Shown piece by piece: positions 477-12,750 of a stretch of 22,614 nucleotides of DNA. Where the stretch lies: positions 1 through 22,614 of the forward strand of contig JAJYYS010000006.1 in assembly GCA_021800745.1 (NCBI GenBank), given 5' to 3'. Within the stretch, counting starts at the first letter, position 1, and each line of letters begins with the position of its first letter. The notes below the pieces were generated by a model that ran no database searches, was not told where the DNA came from, and saw only the letters and a list, made by a program, of their open reading frames with translations. This stretch comes from a bacterium. GTDB lineage: Bacteria > SZUA-79 > Acidulodesulfobacterales > Acidulodesulfobacteraceae. The translations under genes and the position numbers were made by a program.

Positions 477-2588
477 TTAATAAAATTTTTTGGTTTTATC
501 GTTATAGTAAAAATTACTTCTGGCTTTAATTTTATTATAATATATCATATCTTTTGTTTTAAATGAATCTATAAAGCGCTGCAATTCTTCTTTTATATAA
601 TTAAAAGAATATCCGAGCCTGTTCGAAATCTCAATTAAAAGGGTCAAAATATCATGCCTGGCCCCTCCTAAGTGAAACTCATTGTTTATATTTATTATGT
701 TTCCTTCAAAGTTTTCATAAAGTAAATTTCTGCTTTCAAGAAAATCCTTAACCGGTATAACAATATCCGCCATGGCCGACAGCATACTTGCCTTAGAAGA
801 TAAAACGGCTAAAAAATCCATATCCGCCGCATGTTTAGCTATATCTTTAAAAACAGAATCGTTAGAGGCGTCTCCTATATATATAAGATTTTTAATCTTC
901 CTGCCGCTTAATCCTGAATTTATTGAATTGAAACCTAAAAAACCGTTCTCCGAGGGATTTATGCCTGCAGTTAAAAGTCCTCTATAATTAAAAGGTTTTA
1001 TAAGCGGGTAAATATATAAAGTTTTCTGCTCATCTCTTAAAAACTCGACTATTTCTTTTAATATCAAAATATCCGTACTTATATCATATACCGATAAAAG
1101 CCCGTCGCCTAATATAACGGAAATAGAATTTGCTTTAAGCATATTTTTTACAATTTCATCGTCTTTCTTGAATGAGTAATCATAAAGACCCGACCGCAAA
1201 CCGGTTAAAAAATCATGGATTGAAGATATATTTATATCTCTTCTGGTATATGCTATATCTTCAAATCTAGTTAACGAAGAATCGGAATCTTTTTTTATGT
1301 TTACGAGCAAAAGCTTTCCGCCGTGTTCTCTATGAGTTTTCATAATATTATACAAAGCATACGGAATATCGTCTTCAATGCTGCCTACATAGAGCATGAT
1401 TTCGGAATTTCGTACAGCTTTAATATCAAATAACTCTTCACTTTTAAATACGGCTTTAAACTTGTTAAAGTTTGTTCTATAAAATTCGGGCTCAGCAATA
1501 TCAAAATATGCAGGCTTTAAAATATTTTTCACAAATCCGGCTATTGCAAAACCGTCGTTTATGGAGACATTAGGAGAAACTAAGACAGCTGTATTATTCA
1601 TATCTCCTTTTTCCGAGATATTTTTAATTTTTAATGCAAGTTCTTTTATGGAATTTTCAAAAGTAGTTTCTTCAAGCATGGATTTCTTTTTAATATAAGG
1701 CGATGAAATGTAATATCCGTTATCCATTCCTATTCCTTCATAAAAAAAACCGTATTTGCATAGATATCCGCCGAATAATGAAGCGGTCCTGACTAACGAT
1801 TCTTCTTTATCATATCTATAATATTCAATTCTGCATGCCGCGGAGCATTTATCGCAAACAGATGAAAAAGGAGATTCCTGCCAGTATCTTTCTTTGAATT
1901 TAGAAGGCTTTGAAAGCAAAGCGCCGACGGGACAAACATCGACGCAATTTCCGCAATAATAACAATTTAAGTAATTTATATCCGGCTTAATTTCGGTAAA
2001 AGAGCAGTTTTCCGATGGATTAGAACCTAATTGCAATTTATCGTCAAGCTTTAGACCGATATAACCGTTGTATCCTTTATTTTTAATTTGATAAAACGGA
2101 TTCCCGTACATATCGGTGCATACCCTGATACACCTAGAACATAGAATGCACCTTGTTGCCGTATATTCGATAAAATCGCTTTTAAATATATGCGTTCTAT
2201 CGGGAAAACCTTTATTGTTTTTTTGGGTCGTAAGACCAAATTCAAAAGAAAGATTCTGTAAATCGCATTCGCCTGATTTGTCGCAAACAGGACAATCAAG
2301 AGGGTGGTCTAATAAAAGATGAGACAATGACTCTTTTCTTACCTTCCATACTTTTTCCGTATCGGTTAAGATTTCATAGCCTTCCTTTACTCTTGCCACG
2401 CAAGAAGGGAGCGGATTTTGAATTCCTTTAACCTCAACCACGCAGATTCTGCAGGAACCTATAGGTCTGAGCCTTTTTAGATAACATAACGTAGGAATCT
2501 TAATTCCAGCCTGAGAAGCGGCTTCAAGGATCGTCAATCCCGATTTTGTCATTATCTTTTTATTGTCAATCGTTATCTCGATATTCAC
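477..2588 (-). CDS. nuoG: NADH-quinone oxidoreductase subunit G with an additional ferredoxin-like cluster segment
   Basis: NuoG is the large iron-sulfur subunit of the peripheral arm of complex I and relays electrons from the input module. The 703-residue product starts with a [2Fe-2S] ferredoxin domain (C35, C46, C49, C63). Next comes the His-Cys cluster motif (H95, C99, C102, C108), then two four-cysteine motifs (C147/150/153/157 and C209/212/215/219), then a C-x2-C-x3-C-x24-C motif (C245-C277) like cluster N7. The rest resembles a cofactor-poor molybdopterin-oxidoreductase domain. Textbook NuoG has only one cluster (N4) in the 147-219 region, so the full eight cysteines are notable. The start is GTG (positions 2586-2588), with GAGG and AGGA a few bases upstream. 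The gene begins 5 bases after the stop of the NuoF/GltD fusion, so the two are almost certainly co-transcribed and probably physical partners. Confidence 0.93.
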   Translation of the reverse strand: MNIEITIDNKKIMTKSGLTILEAASQAGIKIPTLCYLKRLRPIGSCRICVVEVKGIQNPLPSCVARVKEGYEILTDTEKVWKVRKESLSHLLLDHPLDCPVCDKSGECDLQNLSFEFGLTTQKNNKGFPDRTHIFKSDFIEYTATRCILCSRCIRVCTDMYGNPFYQIKNKGYNGYIGLKLDDKLQLGSNPSENCSFTEIKPDINYLNCYYCGNCVDVCPVGALLSKPSKFKERYWQESPFSSVCDKCSAACRIEYYRYDKEESLVRTASLFGGYLCKYGFFYEGIGMDNGYYISSPYIKKKSMLEETTFENSIKELALKIKNISEKGDMNNTAVLVSPNVSINDGFAIAGFVKNILKPAYFDIAEPEFYRTNFNKFKAVFKSEELFDIKAVRNSEIMLYVGSIEDDIPYALYNIMKTHREHGGKLLLVNIKKDSDSSLTRFEDIAYTRRDINISSIHDFLTGLRSGLYDYSFKKDDEIVKNMLKANSISVILGDGLLSVYDISTDILILKEIVEFLRDEQKTLYIYPLIKPFNYRGLLTAGINPSENGFLGFNSINSGLSGRKIKNLIYIGDASNDSVFKDIAKHAADMDFLAVLSSKASMLSAMADIVIPVKDFLESRNLLYENFEGNIININNEFHLGGARHDILTLLIEISNRLGYSFNYIKEELQRFIDSFKTKDMIYYNKIKARSNFYYNDKTKKFY

Positions 2589-2593
2589 TTTTC

Positions 2594-4501
2594 CTAATCC
2601 TCAAACTTTACGAGCATGAGAAAATAACATCTCATACATCTTGTGGCTTCATATACGACATCATCGCTTGTTAAACCTTTATCTGCCTCCATAAAATTGC
2701 TTATGCGCGCTTCAACAGGTTCTTCTACCGGCTCGGCCGCTAAATTTCCTTTTGGAAAATCGGTATAATCTACCATCTCTTTTTTGTCATAAACGCCTAT
2801 CTTTTCAAACAGATATTCAAAAAGACAATCGTCGGTCGCCTCGAATGAACCGGTTCTTATATACTGGTCTATCCTTCTTGCGGCATTTTTACCGTCGCGA
2901 TTTGAATCGACTATGCTCATAGGGCCGGTTAACGCATCGCCTCCGGCAAATACTCCCTGCATATCGGTCATATGAGTAAATTCATCCGCTGCTATTGTTT
3001 TGCCTTTATTTGTTTTAATATCCGGCGTATCTTTTAAAAAATCAAAATCCGGGACCTGCCCGACCGCCATAATAAATGAATCGCATTGAATATCAAAATC
3101 GCTTCCTTCTATCTCGATAGGACTTCTTCTTCCGCTTTTATCAGGTTCTCCAAGCTTCATTTTCCCGCATCTTACACCCTTAACAACCCCGTCTTTTTGA
3201 ATAATGCTTACGGGATTGGTAAGAAATTCGAATTTAACGCCTTCTTTAAGCGCGGTATCAAGCTCATACGGCGCTGCCGGCATTTGCTCTTTTGCCCTTC
3301 TATACACGACTACAACTTCTTTAAACCCTAATCTAATAGCTGTTCTGCAGCAATCTATAGCAACATTGCCGCCGCCTTCTATTATAACTTTATTGCCGAT
3401 ATCTATTTTGTTTCCAAGCGCAACATCGCGTAAAAACTTAACTCCGTCATAAAAACCCTTAAGATTGTCATCCTCCCCGGGTAAACCTATATTTTGCCCC
3501 TTATGAGCGCCGATAGCAACGAAAACAGCTTTAAAATCTTGCTCAAAAAGATCCCGTATCTTAAAATCCACCCCGAGTTTTTGATTTAATTTATATTCAA
3601 TTCCGGTAGAAATGATGTAGTTAATTTCTTTATCTAAGAATTCTTGCGGCAATCTGAATTTTGGAATACCGACGCTCATCATGCCGCCCAAAACCGGTAA
3701 TGCTTCAAATATTACAGGCCAATAGCCCATTAAACGCAAATAATAAGCGCAGGCTAAACCTGCGGGACCGGAGCCTATAATCGCTACTTTAATTCCATTG
3801 TCTTTGATTGTAAACTTTGGCTTAACATTGGAATAAAATTGATTATCGGCGGCAAACCTTCTTATTAAACATATCTGAATAGGTTCATCGACATTAGCTC
3901 TGCGGCAATTATCCTGGCACGGATGAAAACAGGTTCTTCCCAAAATTCCCGCCAACGGGGTACTTCTTCTGGCGGATTCAAGGGCATCCTCAAATCTGCC
4001 GTCCCTGACTCTTTCAATCCAGTTCGGAATATCGAGTTTGGATGGACAACCGTTAATACACGGGGCGGTTACATGAACTATATAATTTCCTTTAGGTATA
4101 ATTTCCTTATTTATTATAGCATTCTCAAAATCTTCCTTAAAATTATCGATTAGTTCCGTAACGGCAAGCGGCCCCTTGGTTCCCACAGTACACTTAGAAG
4201 ACGATAAAATCCAATCGCATTGGTTTTTAAGTTTATCCAAATCTTCTAAGACGGCGCGGCCGTTGCATATATCCTCAAGAATATCGGAGGCAACCGAGGT
4301 TCCAACCATGCAAGGCGTGCAAACGCCGCAGGAAATCTTTTGCAGTTCCTGCATATAACATCTTGCCAAATCAACTTTGTTGTCCTTATCGTCAAGTAAA
4401 GCTACTCCCTGCCAATTGAGTATGGAAGAAATATTGGTATGTCCTGATCTCTTAAAGTATGAAATATCTAATTTTGAACCTATTTTATCTATAATCTTCA
4501 T
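2594..4501 (-). CDS. Chimeric complex I input subunit: NuoF C-terminal Fe-S domain fused to GltD-like FAD/NAD(P)H oxidoreductase
   Basis: This 635-residue protein occupies the nuoE-nuoF position of the complex I operon. Residues 1-135 match the end of NuoF, including SCGVCTPC (C58, C61, C64) and the fourth ligand C104, as for cluster N3. The NADH/FMN-binding part of NuoF (glycine-rich GRGGAGFP-type motif) is absent. Residues 140-635 match the glutamate synthase small subunit/NfnB/dihydropyrimidine dehydrogenase family. They show an N-terminal cysteine domain (C148, C152, C191, C195, C199), an FAD dinucleotide fold GSGPAGLA (243-250), a second nucleotide fold GGGNVAIDCCR (376-386), YRRAKEQMPA (400-409, resembling the NADPH-contacting YRR..MPA of GltD), and VFAGGDALTGP (517-527). 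The tail ends in RCMRC. I infer that this module feeds electrons from NAD(P)H through FAD and N3 into NuoG. There is no visible ribosome binding site before the ATG at 4501, where the leader is AT-rich. The gene is intact with no frameshift. Domain calls are firm; the biochemical role is inferred. Confidence 0.88.
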   Translation of the reverse strand: MKIIDKIGSKLDISYFKRSGHTNISSILNWQGVALLDDKDNKVDLARCYMQELQKISCGVCTPCMVGTSVASDILEDICNGRAVLEDLDKLKNQCDWILSSSKCTVGTKGPLAVTELIDNFKEDFENAIINKEIIPKGNYIVHVTAPCINGCPSKLDIPNWIERVRDGRFEDALESARRSTPLAGILGRTCFHPCQDNCRRANVDEPIQICLIRRFAADNQFYSNVKPKFTIKDNGIKVAIIGSGPAGLACAYYLRLMGYWPVIFEALPVLGGMMSVGIPKFRLPQEFLDKEINYIISTGIEYKLNQKLGVDFKIRDLFEQDFKAVFVAIGAHKGQNIGLPGEDDNLKGFYDGVKFLRDVALGNKIDIGNKVIIEGGGNVAIDCCRTAIRLGFKEVVVVYRRAKEQMPAAPYELDTALKEGVKFEFLTNPVSIIQKDGVVKGVRCGKMKLGEPDKSGRRSPIEIEGSDFDIQCDSFIMAVGQVPDFDFLKDTPDIKTNKGKTIAADEFTHMTDMQGVFAGGDALTGPMSIVDSNRDGKNAARRIDQYIRTGSFEATDDCLFEYLFEKIGVYDKKEMVDYTDFPKGNLAAEPVEEPVEARISNFMEADKGLTSDDVVYEATRCMRCYFLMLVKFED

Positions 4502-4534: not shown

Positions 4535-5734
4535 TTACCTGTCCACTTCTCCAAGCAATATATCTACGCTTCCCATAATCGCTATTAAATCGGCTACCAG
4601 ATGCCCCTTGACCATTTTATTCAACGCGCTTATATTGCAAAACGACGGCGGTCTTACTCTCATTCTGTATGGAAAAGCCGAACCGTCCGATACCATATAA
4701 AAACCTAATTCTCCTCTAGGATTTTCTATGGAAACGTAAGCCTCTCCTTTAGGAGGCTTTATGCCTTCCATTCCGTATTTAAAAAGAGAAATCATCCCTT
4801 CCATAGTCGTTAATGCCCTCTTCTTGGGAGGAATAACATATTTGGGATATTCATCGTAACTTAAGTATTCGCCTTCCGGAACATTTTCTATTGCCTGAGC
4901 TATTATTTTAAGGCTCTGCCTCATCTCTTCCATTCTGACTAAATACCTGTCGTAAACGTCTCCCGTTTCTCCCGTCGGTATTTCAAAATCGAAATCTTCA
5001 TAACGCGAATAAGGGTTTGCTTTTCTGACGTCGTATTTTATTCCGCTTCCTCTGAGCGACGGTCCGGATAATGCAAAATTTATAGCATCTTCGGCAGAAA
5101 TTATTCCTAAATTTTTCGTCCTTTCCAACCATATTTTATTTTTTGTAAGAAGCGCTTCATACTCGACGATTTTATCCGGAAAAATTTTAATAAAGTCTCT
5201 TGTTTTATCGAAAAAATCTTTATGCACGTCCATTGCAAGACCGCCTACGCGGTAAAAAGAAGGGGTCATCCTCGCGCCCGTAACCGTTTCTATTATGTCT
5301 AATATAAGTTCTCTTTCGCGGAAGCAATATAAAAACTCGGTCAACGCGCCGAGATCTACGGCATGCGTCGCAAGCCATACAAGATGGGAACTTATCCTTG
5401 TAAATTCCGCAAGAATAACTCTCACGTATTCGGCTCTTTTAGGAGCTTTAACTCCGCAGAGTTTTTCCACCGCAAGGATATAACCGAGATTATTGGAAGC
5501 TCCGGAAACATAGTCCATCCTGTCGGTAATGGTTTCCGCCTGATGGTATGTCCTGAATTCCGCAAACTTTTCCATACTAGTATGCAGATAACCTATTATA
5601 GGCTCGGCATTAATAACGGTTTCTCCGTCCAACTGGACTAAAACTCTAAGAACGCCATGGGTGGCAGGGTGAGATGGACCGATGTTTAACGCAAACTTAT
5701 CCGTTTCTATGAGAAAATCTTTATATTCGAACAT
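4535..5734 (-). CDS. nuoD: NADH-quinone oxidoreductase subunit D
   Basis: NuoD is the 49-kDa-type subunit that forms much of the quinone-binding cavity of complex I, together with NuoB. The 399-residue product is of usual length for a free-standing NuoD and is not fused to NuoC. It shows NIGPSHPATHGVLR (residues 17-30, with the quinone-site histidine at about 26), GYLHTSMEKFAEFRTYHQ (48-65), DRMDY with the family's conserved tyrosine at about 75, and the characteristic C-terminal end ILLGEVDR. It starts at ATG 5734, 23 bases after the nuoC stop. No ribosome binding site is evident in the AT-rich leader. The gene sits between nuoC and the NuoF/GltD fusion in canonical nuo order. Confidence 0.96.
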   Translation of the reverse strand: MFEYKDFLIETDKFALNIGPSHPATHGVLRVLVQLDGETVINAEPIIGYLHTSMEKFAEFRTYHQAETITDRMDYVSGASNNLGYILAVEKLCGVKAPKRAEYVRVILAEFTRISSHLVWLATHAVDLGALTEFLYCFRERELILDIIETVTGARMTPSFYRVGGLAMDVHKDFFDKTRDFIKIFPDKIVEYEALLTKNKIWLERTKNLGIISAEDAINFALSGPSLRGSGIKYDVRKANPYSRYEDFDFEIPTGETGDVYDRYLVRMEEMRQSLKIIAQAIENVPEGEYLSYDEYPKYVIPPKKRALTTMEGMISLFKYGMEGIKPPKGEAYVSIENPRGELGFYMVSDGSAFPYRMRVRPPSFCNISALNKMVKGHLVADLIAIMGSVDILLGEVDR

Positions 5735-5757: not shown

Positions 5758-6288
5758 TTATATTTTTTCTAACTCGATGTATCCCGGGGCATCCATTTTA
5801 ATTTCTTCGGGCTCCGGTCTTTTTCTTAAAGGATAGTCTTTAAGAAGCGGGTGTCCGTCCCAGTCGTCTGGATTTAATATTCTTTTTAAATCCGGGTGAC
5901 CTTTAAATTTCAGCCCGAACATATCATATACTTCTCTTTCAAACCAGTCGGCAGAATTATAAATGGGGGTTAAACTCGGATACTCCGTTTCATCGGCTTT
6001 ACCGGCGGCCTTGATAAAAACCCTGAAATTATTTTTTATCGAATAAAAATTGTAAATTACTTCTATTCTTTCCGGTCTTTTCGGATAATCGACGGCAAAT
6101 AAATCCGACAGCATATCAAACTCTAATCTGGAATCGGTTTTTAAAAATACCGCAAATTCAAGCAAATCTTCTTTTTTAATCTGTATATGCACGTCTCCGT
6201 TAATAGCATCCGAAGCAATAATCGATTTAGACATAGATTCTTTAATAACGGTTAATGCGAACGTTACATCCATATTGTCGGAGTTCAT
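5758..6288 (-). CDS. nuoC: NADH-quinone oxidoreductase subunit C
   Basis: NuoC is the 30-kDa-type hydrophilic subunit of complex I. It carries no cofactor and supports assembly of the NuoB-NuoD connecting fragment. The 176-residue protein has the family signature in its second half: [19 protein letters not shown] (about 129-147), followed by [25 protein letters not shown]. The start was taken at ATG 6288. A second in-frame ATG lies five codons further in and cannot be excluded, because neither has a clear ribosome binding site. The 34-base spacer after the nuoB stop is very AT-rich and contains TATAAT-like strings, but I would not call a promoter on that alone. Its position between nuoB and nuoD is canonical. 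Confidence 0.95.
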
Positions 6289-10962: not shown

Positions 10963-12750
10963 TTAATATTTAAACTTTTTCAATATGCCTATCAATATTT
11001 CAAGCTCTCCGTATATTGAAGCCGCCTCTTTGGCAGTCTTCGAAGATTTTTCGGAATTAGATATAGAAAGGCTGGATACCGTTTCAATATTCTGGGATAT
11101 CTCGTTGGTTGCCGCGGTCTGTTCTTCCGATGCGGCGGCTATGGAACTGATCTGGTCGGTTAAACTTAGTATGCTTTTTTCTATACCGTCTAAAGATTCG
11201 CCCGCCTTTGAAGCATAACCCACGGACAAATCGACCTCACTCATCGTTTTATCCATAGATGTTTTAGTATCCTGCGTGCTCTGCTGCATAGTTTGAACTT
11301 TGGATACTATTTCTTTAGTGGCTTTAACGGTTCTTTCGGCTAATTTCCTTACTTCGTCGGCTACTACGGCAAATCCCCTGCCGGATTCTCCCGCACGTGC
11401 GGCTTCTATTGCGGCGTTAAGGGCGAGCAGATTGGTCTGGTCGGCTATGTCGTTTATAACCGAAATGATTTCGCCTATTTCGAAAGAGCTTTTTTCTAAT
11501 CCGCTTATAAGACCGCCTAACTGCTTGGTAAGAACGGCGACGTTTTTAATGCCTGAAATAGATTTTTCGACTATATCGAAACCGTCTTTGGCGCTGTCCG
11601 ACGCTTCCTTTGCGATAGAACTTACATTCTGGGTATTCTTGGCAATCTCTTTAATAGTCTGGGACATTTCTTCGGAAGCCGCAGCTACGTGAGTAGCGAT
11701 TTCCGCCTGTTCCTGCGCTTTGCCGCTGATTTCATCCACATGGCCTTCTATGGTAGTGCTGACATCGACGATAGTCATTGCCTCTTCGGTGATGGATTTT
11801 ACTATTTCCCTTATATCGATAATGAATTTATTAAATTCGTTGACGACCGAGGTTATCTCATCGTAAACCGAATTTTTATAAACATAACATTTTTTACAGA
11901 CATGCTCTCCTTTTTCGCCGAACTGCTCTATCTGCTTGTCCCAGCATCTCGGTCCCAGTTCGTCTTCCTTAAGCATGCAGTTTTTATGGCGTTTGGCAAT
12001 AATTACCGTCTTATCGAAACAATCCATAGGAATCAATTTGCTTAAATCTCCTTCGCCCTTCGATATATCTCTGACCCTGCGATAAAAAACGGTGATAGGC
12101 TTAATAAAAGCCTGTTTAAGAAGAACATATATTATTATAATCGATAAAACGATCAGTATAATCGAGAAAATAATAATATTTCTCATAAAAATATTTGAAG
12201 CGTTTACCGTATTTTTTAAAGAATAAACTAGTTCTACTCCGCCTAGGACGGTTCCCTCTTTAACCGTATGGCACATAAGGCAGTCTATGCCGCGGGACAT
12301 CTTTTCCGCCGTAAAAGGAACTCCTACTTTTAAATATTTCTGTCCGTTTTTTTCGTAAACTTTCGTTATCTCCTTGTTAGATGCAAGTATTTCTTTGTCG
12401 AAATTAGACGTCGGAATTTCCTGTTTTAAACCTGCGCCGAATTCTTTATCGACCGAACCGCCTCTTACGACCTTGAAATACTTAATTCCCTTAATCTTCT
12501 GATATATGCCGAATAACTGCCTTCTGTCAGACTTCTTGGCTATAGTACCGTTGAGCATCATGCCGTTCATGCTGGACAGCATCGTCTTTGCGGTAACGAC
12601 GGCATCGAACGACGTCGTTTTTACGGACATTTTGTTCTGGTAAATAACGGCGTAATAAGTTAAAAAAGATAGCATTAAAACTAAAATTACAAAAATTAAG
12701 ACGAGCAGTTTGGTCTTAATCGAAACTTTTTTGATTCTTGAAAAGTTCAT
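10963..12750 (-). CDS. Methyl-accepting chemotaxis protein with CxxCH heme motif and cysteine-rich HAMP-adjacent insertion
   Basis: A transmembrane chemoreceptor that would signal to CheA/CheW. The 595-residue protein has a first membrane helix at about 14-37 and a periplasmic domain of about 150 residues resembling the DUF3365/Tll0287-like sensor family. This domain carries CLMCH (C157-H161), a c-type heme attachment motif placed just before the second helix (about 190-211). After the helix a HAMP-like start ([21 protein letters not shown]) is followed by a stretch with C258, CW (269-270) and CKKC (285-288), resembling the two-CW domain of sensory proteins. The long cytoplasmic helical domain contains the signalling hairpin [19 protein letters not shown] (437-455) and [17 protein letters not shown]. 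There is no C-terminal CheR-tethering pentapeptide. It probably senses redox state, gas or electron acceptors. The start ATG has a G-rich ribosome binding site. Confidence 0.93.

What the first reader, a model, noticed from the sequence alone, without database searches (positions are those of the whole stretch)
2594..4501. Complex I operon with NuoE/NuoF replaced by a NuoF-tail/GltD-like FAD oxidoreductase fusion
The gene order is nuoA-B-C-D-[fusion]-nuoG-nuoH. The fusion keeps only the N3-type Fe-S domain of NuoF (C58, C61, C64, C104). In place of the FMN/NADH Rossmann part it has a GltD/NfnB-type FAD and NAD(P)H oxidoreductase with its own cysteine domain. There is no nuoE and no complete nuoF in the operon seen here. 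The YRR..MPA motif suggests NADPH as a possible donor. This would be a complex I with an alternative electron input, possibly NADPH-driven or running in reverse to make NADPH. Domain content is seen directly; the role is inferred. It may already be known in some lineages.
Basis: partly seen in the sequence, partly recalled or inferred. Interest (0 to 1): 0.78.

Follow-up and report, generated by a model that had tools for sequence, protein, structure and literature searches.

The report
Complex I with an NADPH-type entry module
In an acid-mine bacterium the part of respiratory complex I that normally takes electrons from NADH appears to have been replaced by a different enzyme module that looks built for NADPH, and similar swaps turn up in two other bacterial groups.

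Summary
Confirmed. Window 2594-4501 (minus) encodes a 635-aa protein, NuoF's N3 Fe-S domain joined to a GltD/NfnB-type FAD-NAD(P)H oxidoreductase, between nuoD and nuoG. The window is kin to Ca. Acidulodesulfobacterales. A relative's operon is complete: nuoABCD-fusion-GHIJKLMN. Full-length orthologues occur in 23 of 25 family genomes, with nuoD adjacent in 23 of 23. 11 of the 25 have no PF01512 (NuoF-type) protein. In the 5 of 14 positive genomes examined, the NuoEF-type genes go with formate dehydrogenases.

Elsewhere, nuoD precedes the fusion in 30 of 30 Campylobacterota loci (a small NuoX-like gene lies between) and 27 of 30 loci of a Desulfobacterota-like phylum. Quick trees reject one origin for all (p 8e-8) and disfavour one for this lineage plus Campylobacterota (p 0.016).

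The YRR motif that binds the NADP phosphate in NfnB, and goes with strict NADP(H) use in DsrL-2 (PMC7596348, passages), is in 32 of 32 rows of this lineage and 185 of 186 others. Best reading: proton-pumping NADP(H):menaquinone oxidoreductase, direction unknown. No assay exists. I found no description in the papers held; two likely ones are not held.

The parts
2594..4501 (-). Fusion subunit, 635 aa: N3-type Fe-S domain of NuoF (res. 44-127), Fer4_20 two-cluster domain (145-222), FAD/NAD(P)H domains (238-535), C-terminal RCxRC tail (C622, C625)
   Evidence: Pfam and NCBIfam; alignment; AlphaFold2 pLDDT 91.4, pTM 0.90; best solved matches NfnABC/StnC chains
4121..4372 (-). NuoF-derived N3 [4Fe-4S] domain, residues 44-127, ligands C58, C61, C64, C104
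   Evidence: PF10589 67.4 bits vs cut-off 23.5; NuoF model TIGR01959 matched only at 303-410 of 410
2897..3790 (-). GltD/NfnB-type FAD and NAD(P)H Rossmann domains, residues 238-535; NADP-type YRR motif at 400-402
   Evidence: PF07992 103.8 bits; aligned to NfnB; YRR in 32 of 32 rows of the lineage and 185 of 186 others
477..2588 (-). nuoG, 703 aa (GTG start); by sequence keeps the ligand sets of N1b, N5, two ferredoxin-type [4Fe-4S] clusters and N7 (cluster names and ligand sets recalled)
   Evidence: NuoG model TIGR01973 276 bits, below its cut-off 470; Pfam; sequence read
4535..5734 (-). nuoD
   Evidence: PF00346 384 bits; TIGR01962 over cut-off
5758..6288 (-). nuoC
   Evidence: PF00329 155.5 bits
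6323..6817 (-). nuoB
   Evidence: PF01058 107.7 bits
6808..7161 (-). nuoA
   Evidence: PF00507 119.8 bits
1..449 (-). nuoH, N-terminal part only, cut by the window edge
   Evidence: translation; 95% identical over 149 aa to nuoH of L130

Best explanation
The operon encodes a proton-pumping complex I whose NADH-input subunits NuoE and NuoF are replaced by one FAD protein of the SfrB/GltD kind. NADP(H) binds the YRR-bearing Rossmann domain and exchanges a hydride with FAD. Single electrons pass through the two [4Fe-4S] clusters of the Fer4_20 domain to the retained NuoF-type N3 cluster, then into NuoG and on through NuoI and NuoB to menaquinone. The enzyme would be an NADP(H):menaquinone oxidoreductase, either oxidising NADPH to pump protons or using proton motive force to make NADPH. 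Shown: gene order, domains, conserved ligands, the YRR motif, lack of NuoEF in many relatives, recurrence in other lineages. Inferred: assembly on NuoG, cofactor, electron path, direction.
For: Position between nuoD and nuoG in 23 of 23 family loci, with one strong NuoD per genome in 16 of 16. Complete operon A-N around it in L130. No PF01512 protein in 11 of 25 family genomes, 7 of them at least 90% complete, and none in 7 of 7 Campylobacterota genomes with a like arrangement. Retained NuoF N3 domain. Y400-R401-R402 aligned with the NADP-phosphate residues of NfnB (residue roles from PMC7596348, passages), present in 32 of 32 rows of this lineage and 185 of 186 other rows. 15 of 16 genomes carry PF02621 (menaquinone synthesis, futalosine route, recalled); 0 of 16 have PntB and 0 of 16 have Nqr2/RnfD/RnfE. 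Fold model of high confidence matching NADPH-linked StnC/NfnABC chains.
Against: No biochemistry, expression or complex model; docking on NuoG untested. NuoG scores below the NuoG family cut-off (276 vs 470). In this same order the DsrL protein bears YNK in place of YRR (PMC7596348, passages), so its GltD-like enzymes do not all keep the motif. R214 takes a likely cluster-ligand position that is Lys in 185 of 186 other rows. In Campylobacterota the third N3 cysteine is Gly (37 of 37 rows) and a NuoX-like gene is kept (30 of 30), so that version may work differently and is a weaker parallel. 9 of the 14 family genomes with NuoEF-type genes were not opened. The window's own genome could not be searched.
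Confidence: 0.7

Rival explanations
1. The fusion and NuoG form a separate soluble SfrAB-like NADPH oxidoreductase that is only co-transcribed; complex I itself would be a ferredoxin-type enzyme without an N-module.
For: In the trees the Campylobacterota fusions lie next to SfrB-type proteins (99 support) and their NuoG next to SfrA-type (80). Complex I lacking the NADH module is known (PMC11238625, listing only). Campylobacterota have two nuoG genes, so one could serve a second enzyme.
Against: Insertion between nuoD and nuoG in 23 of 23 family loci and a single nuoG in the eight family operons L130-L137; NuoG keeps its full cluster set as read by eye.
Confidence: 0.13
2. The fusion is the input subunit of complex I but works with NAD(H).
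For: NuoF relatives use NADH; no PntB transhydrogenase in 16 of 16 genomes, so another NADH:quinone route would be wanted. Nqr/Rnf are absent too. Type II NADH dehydrogenases were not sought.
Against: YRR in 32 of 32 rows of the lineage; enzymes of this fold with YRR (DsrL-2) are strictly NADP(H)-linked and those tested without it prefer or need NAD(H) (PMC7596348, passages).
Confidence: 0.09
3. The FAD bifurcates or confurcates as in Nfn, coupling NADPH, ferredoxin and quinone.
For: Arg at the NfnB R201 position is present (R283 by my count, in 218 of 218 rows).
Against: The equivalent Arg occurs in StnC, whose FAD does not bifurcate (PMC10482914, passages). No NuoE/NuoF-type core in the operon and none in 11 of 25 genomes.
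Confidence: 0.07
4. Assembly artefact or decayed operon.
For: None found.
Against: Open full-length orthologues in 23 of 25 genomes and conserved ligands.
Confidence: 0.01

Closest known systems
SfrAB, NADPH oxidoreductase of Geobacter (SfrB subunit)
   Same: GltD-like NADPH subunit paired with a NuoG-like subunit (PMC7483475, passages). The SfrB-type proteins L055 and L059 have the N3 domain and are sister to the Campylobacterota fusions, sharing Gly at C64 with them; L056, P0057 and P0092 also have Gly there
   Different: Described as a soluble reductase (PMC7483475, passages); here the module sits inside a complete nuo operon. L055/L059 are called SfrB-type by position and kinship, not by a named model
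FDH- and hydrogenase-linked GltD/NuoF-tail fusions (L053 beside a true formate dehydrogenase alpha; L058 Moorella NuoF-GltD beside [FeFe] hydrogenase A6)
   Same: Same 4Fe-4S plus GltD architecture beside a NuoG-like N-terminus
   Different: Partner is FDH or hydrogenase; the Moorella type is about 1000 aa long, like database NuoF-GltD proteins that keep the FMN domain
StnC / NfnABC (8oh5, 9bov, 9n5u)
   Same: GltD-like NADPH-FAD module feeding a NuoG-like chain; an RCxxC motif after the GltD part
   Different: Soluble bifurcating transhydrogenases with a NuoE/NuoF-type core (PMC10482914, passages)
Nuo-Bfu complex I (PMC9304861, passages)
   Same: Complex I with an altered electron-input module in the middle of the operon, argued to help menaquinone-linked pumping
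   Different: Keeps a BfuABC bifurcating core with a NuoF homologue; predicted for NADH plus ferredoxin
Campylobacter/Helicobacter complex I with NuoXY (PMC6682613, passages)
   Same: nuoEF replaced by other genes. The Campylobacterota fusion operons keep a gene of the PF16514 family, matched by 2lxr, solved as 'NADH dehydrogenase I subunit E' (NuoX-like by recall), in 30 of 30 loci
   Different: NuoXY are thought to take electrons from flavodoxin or ferredoxin. The window lineage and the Desulfobacterota-like loci show no PF16514-like gene by tblastn. NuoY was not compared
Nitrospina NUO-2 (PMC3578206, passages)
   Same: Complex I variant without the FMN site in NuoF
   Different: Said to keep a NuoF with extra ferredoxin-like clusters; proposed for ferredoxin

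Membership tests
Respiratory complex I (NDH-1) | Q-module NuoB, C, D (I) and membrane arm A, H, J-N | tested here: met
   A-D and part of H in the window; A-N complete in relative L130
Respiratory complex I (NDH-1) | NuoF with FMN/NADH domain (PF01512) and NuoE (PF01257) | tested here: not met
   Absent from the operon part in the window; absent from 11 of 25 family genomes; in 5 of the other 14, opened as L138-L142, they go with formate dehydrogenases
Respiratory complex I (NDH-1) | NuoG with its Fe-S chain | tested here: met
   Fer2_4, NADH-G_4Fe-4S_3, Fer4_Nqo3 domains and cysteine sets read by eye; score under the NuoG cut-off
SfrB/FdhB-type NADPH module | PF10589 + PF14691 + PF07992 in one chain beside a NuoG-like gene | tested here: met
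SfrB/FdhB-type NADPH module | Activity with NADPH | not testable with these tools
   Only the YRR motif speaks to it
SfrAB enzyme proper | Stand-alone soluble two-subunit enzyme | tested here: inconclusive
   Gene lies inside a nuo operon, which argues against; solubility and partners cannot be tested here
Nfn/Stn bifurcating transhydrogenase | NuoE/NuoF-type second flavin partner in the operon | tested here: not met
   No such gene in the window operon or in L130-L137; an NfnA-type partner was not sought
Nuo-Bfu | BfuB (NuoF homologue with PF01512) in the operon | tested here: not met
Campylobacter-type NuoXY complex I | NuoX-like gene (PF16514) after nuoD | tested here: not met
   tblastn with the L065 copy: found in 30 of 30 Campylobacterota loci, in none of the window, 31 family loci and 31 Desulfobacterota-like loci; NuoY not tested

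The most novel reading that the evidence does not exclude
Complex I exists as a recurrent NADP(H):menaquinone oxidoreductase class. Its NADH module was swapped for an SfrB/FdhB-like NADP(H)-FAD module at least twice and probably three times (Acidulodesulfobacterales, Campylobacterota with a kept NuoX-like subunit, a Desulfobacterota-like phylum). It lets menaquinone-based lithotrophs either pump more protons from the more reducing NADPH pool or make NADPH directly by reverse electron flow. In this lineage an arginine has also taken the place of the lysine at the likely FAD-proximal cluster ligand.
Probability: 0.55. Interest if true: 0.77.

Novelty: new variant of a known kind. Interest (0 to 1): 0.62.

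Why it matters
Complex I is textbook NADH chemistry. A form that couples proton pumping to NADP(H) would link the respiratory chain directly to the biosynthetic redox pool and change energy budgets for acid-mine sulfur bacteria and a good part of the Campylobacterota. It would also explain a gap in print: the Acidulodesulfobacterales nuo set was reported as nearly complete except nuoE, nuoF and nuoG (PMC6776010, passages). Recurrent capture of the same module would show that the input end of complex I is exchangeable. The claim could be tested directly in a cultured Sulfurimonas-type relative, if an isolate carries the arrangement.

Tried and rejected
Separate NuoEF for this complex: searched in 25 family genomes. 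Of the 14 positives, 5 were opened (L138-L142). Pfam scans covered 10 proteins of L138, 2 of L140 and 1 of L142, which show formate dehydrogenases; L139 and L141 fall with them in the NuoG/FdhA tree. The other 9 were not opened.

My first count called the Campylobacterota fusions 'directly' next to nuoD. On checking, a gap of 225-281 bases in 7 of 7 named loci holds a small ORF, of the PF16514 family in the three scanned, and matched in 30 of 30 loci of L148-L177.

Canonical NuoG controls: of 8 stretches fetched, L209-L212 showed NuoEF-type genes and three gave a usable NuoG row. The other four had no match to my references; I recall that RnfC also hits PF01512.

Rows dropped: 135 candidates covered residues 45-545 and were kept; the tree used 63 (43 loci, the window, 19 of 91 database proteins). 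The NuoG tree used 67 of 77 rows (10 of 20 desulfo rows left out) and has long branches that meet. Both are quick trees, and groups were chosen after contexts were seen, so the AU p values are not pre-registered.

L202, L204 and L206 showed no nuoD upstream yet were counted in the 31-row Desulfobacterota-like group. Only the 30 best loci per search were opened (of 46 and 100 positive genomes). Genome G043 (L054) has four PF01512 hits elsewhere, not examined.

Fold search says little about residues 1-143.

Literature not held: PMC3119410 and doi 10.1128/mBio.00389-15. Novelty rests on searches; one search was for DsrL cofactor use.

Full report
What is there. The minus-strand operon runs nuoA, nuoB, nuoC, nuoD, fusion, nuoG and the start of nuoH. 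nuoA and nuoB overlap, and the other genes are 5 to 34 bases apart (its nuoH end was set 3 bases short, so the nuoG-nuoH gap is 27). The fusion (635 aa) matches three Pfam domains over their cut-offs: NADH_4Fe-4S at 44-127, Fer4_20 at 145-222 and Pyr_redox_2 at 238-535. NuoF models match only its N-terminal part: TIGR01959 positions 303-410 of 410, at residues 22-129. No FMN/NADH domain (PF01512) or NuoE domain (PF01257) is found in the six proteins scanned.

Origin of the window. The window's assembly is not held. The closest database proteins (68-88% identity) include one named Candidatus Acidulodesulfobacterium sp. and several Deltaproteobacteria MAGs; in the 120 rows listed the next relatives fall to about 44%. 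A 2019 paper on this order reported nearly complete nuo complexes except nuoE, nuoF and nuoG (PMC6776010, passages). The window shows nuoG present and a different protein in the nuoEF place.

Conservation in the family. A full-length orthologue is present in 23 of 25 genomes of the family; the two exceptions are 86% and 59% complete. nuoD lies directly upstream in 23 of 23 loci. In 16 genomes examined there is one strong NuoD each (E at most 1.5e-113), 13-145 bases from the fusion. In L130 the operon is complete from A to N; seven other family loci agree, with nuoN short or cut in three of them. PF01512 and PF01257 are absent from the same 11 of 25 genomes, seven of them at least 90% complete. 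In 5 of the other 14 genomes I opened the NuoEF-type genes; they lie with formate dehydrogenase alpha subunits.

Wider occurrence. Eight had nuo genes around the fusion: L054 (Syntrophobacterales bacterium) and seven Campylobacterota, including a Sulfurimonas MAG and a Nitratifractor MAG. A search of 200 genomes of the Campylobacterota centre found 46 positives at E <= 1e-100; 297 genomes of the L054 phylum gave 100 at E <= 1e-140. Of the 30 best loci opened in each, nuoD is upstream in 30 and 27. In the 27 the estimated gap is at most about 290 bases. In Campylobacterota a small gene of the PF16514 family lies between: 7 of 7 named loci have the ORF, three of which were scanned with Pfam (126-141 bits), and 30 of 30 loci of L148-L177 match by tblastn (3 of the 30 are the same loci as named ones). 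Its only strong solved match is 2lxr, named NADH dehydrogenase I subunit E. So there the fusion may stand in the place of one, not both, of the usual genes. Seven of seven Campylobacterota genomes tested lack PF01512. The window lineage has no PF16514-like gene in the loci searched.

Number of origins. In a 63-row tree the complex I-linked fusions fall in three places. Campylobacterota group with SfrB-type proteins of Geobacteraceae-like bacteria (L055, L059; support 99). Holding all 17 complex I rows together is rejected (p 8e-8); holding this lineage and Campylobacterota together gives p 0.016. Gly in place of the third N3 cysteine is shared by all 37 Campylobacterota rows, L055 and L059, but also by L056, P0057 and P0092, so it supports the link only weakly. 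Long NuoF-GltD proteins (e.g. L058 of Moorella with an [FeFe] hydrogenase) sit on the other side of the tree. This suggests, as inference, that the short fusion is a NuoF-GltD protein that lost its FMN part but kept the domain that contacts NuoG. NuoG of each group is a separate clade; that of Campylobacterota is nearest SfrA-type proteins (support 80 only).

Anatomy and cofactor. The HMMER alignment places fusion residues 593-625 on residues 10-42 of T. maritima NfnB (a weak 5.4-bit piece), while 145-551 align with 44-461. So the first pair of cluster cysteines of NfnB (C39, C42) is probably supplied here from the C-terminus (C622, C625), as also in StnC and NfnABC, whose alignments run through to that motif. 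C148, C152, C191, C195 and C199 align with C47, C51, C90, C96 and C100 of NfnB (NfnB ligand roles from PMC7596348, passages; my residue mapping). Over 218 rows, C148-C199 and C58, C61, C104 never vary; C622 and C625 are each a gap in one row. The eighth ligand position (Glu117 in NfnB by my count) is Lys in 185 and His in 1 of 186 other rows, and Arg214 in 32 of 32 rows of this lineage (8 of the 32 rows are second copies of loci already counted, as are 3 of 37 Campylobacterota and 1 of 31 Desulfobacterota-like rows). In StnC a lysine ligand of the cluster called C7 was shown to be needed, and Arg kept at least half of the activity (PMC10482914, passages); that it is the same position is my inference.

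The YRR motif. In NfnB, Y310-R311-R312 hold the NADP phosphate; DsrL-2 with YRR is strictly NADP(H)-dependent, and the DsrL-1 enzymes tested without it prefer or need NAD(H) (PMC7596348, passages). The fusion has Y400-R401-R402, which align there, present in 32 of 32 rows of this lineage and 185 of 186 others. The same paper notes YNK in DsrL of this very order. The prediction that the complex works with NADP(H) is therefore good but not proven.

Physiology. 15 of 16 genomes carry PF02621 (menaquinone synthesis by the futalosine route, recalled), 0 of 16 PntB and 0 of 16 Nqr2/RnfD/RnfE. Complex I is thus the only ion-pumping NAD(P)H:quinone enzyme found among those sought; non-pumping NADH dehydrogenases were not sought. 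NADPH is the stronger reductant in cells (PMC7596348, passages), and NADH-to-menaquinone has been argued to be short of energy for four protons (PMC9304861, passages). An NADPH donor would ease that; run backwards the enzyme would feed biosynthesis. Which way it runs is not known.

Novelty. Nine literature searches and passages of 15 papers showed related ideas (Nuo-Bfu, NuoXY, Nitrospina NUO-2, SfrB as NADPH partner) but not this arrangement. Two papers that might mention it are not held. I class it as a new variant of complex I.

Noticed in passing
L138 (G001), L139 (G004): A second complex I-like cluster in relatives: in L138 antiporter-like and NuoH-like membrane subunits, a NuoC-NuoD-like protein without CxxC pairs (nickel ligands of hydrogenases, recalled), NuoB-like, a NuoE-NuoF fusion and a formate dehydrogenase alpha; L139 looks alike by tblastn. 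It may be a formate/NAD enzyme joined to an ion-pumping module.
   Followed up: partly
2594-4501, residue R214: Arg in place of the Lys found in 185 of 186 other rows at the position that I align with the FAD-proximal cluster ligand of NfnB; 32 of 32 rows of this lineage.
   Followed up: partly
L065 9642-9872 and the like place in L067, L075, L077, L079, L081, L090, L148-L177: Campylobacterota fusion operons keep a small PF16514 gene (NuoX-like) between nuoD and the fusion.
   Followed up: partly
L065, L067, L075, L081: These Campylobacterota operons carry two nuoG genes in tandem after the fusion.
   Followed up: no
10963-12750: Methyl-accepting chemotaxis-type protein (by eye) with a CxxCH (haem-type) motif in its sensor part and a second cysteine-rich stretch.
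   Followed up: no
L143, L058, L057, L061: NuoF-GltD proteins of about 1000 aa next to a NuoE-like gene and, in L058, an [FeFe] hydrogenase; a likely older form of the fusion.
   Followed up: partly
Acidulodesulfobacterales DsrL (from PMC7596348, passages): DsrL of this order is reported to have YNK where other DsrL-2 have YRR, so one GltD-like enzyme departs from the NADP motif while the complex I fusion keeps it.
   Followed up: no
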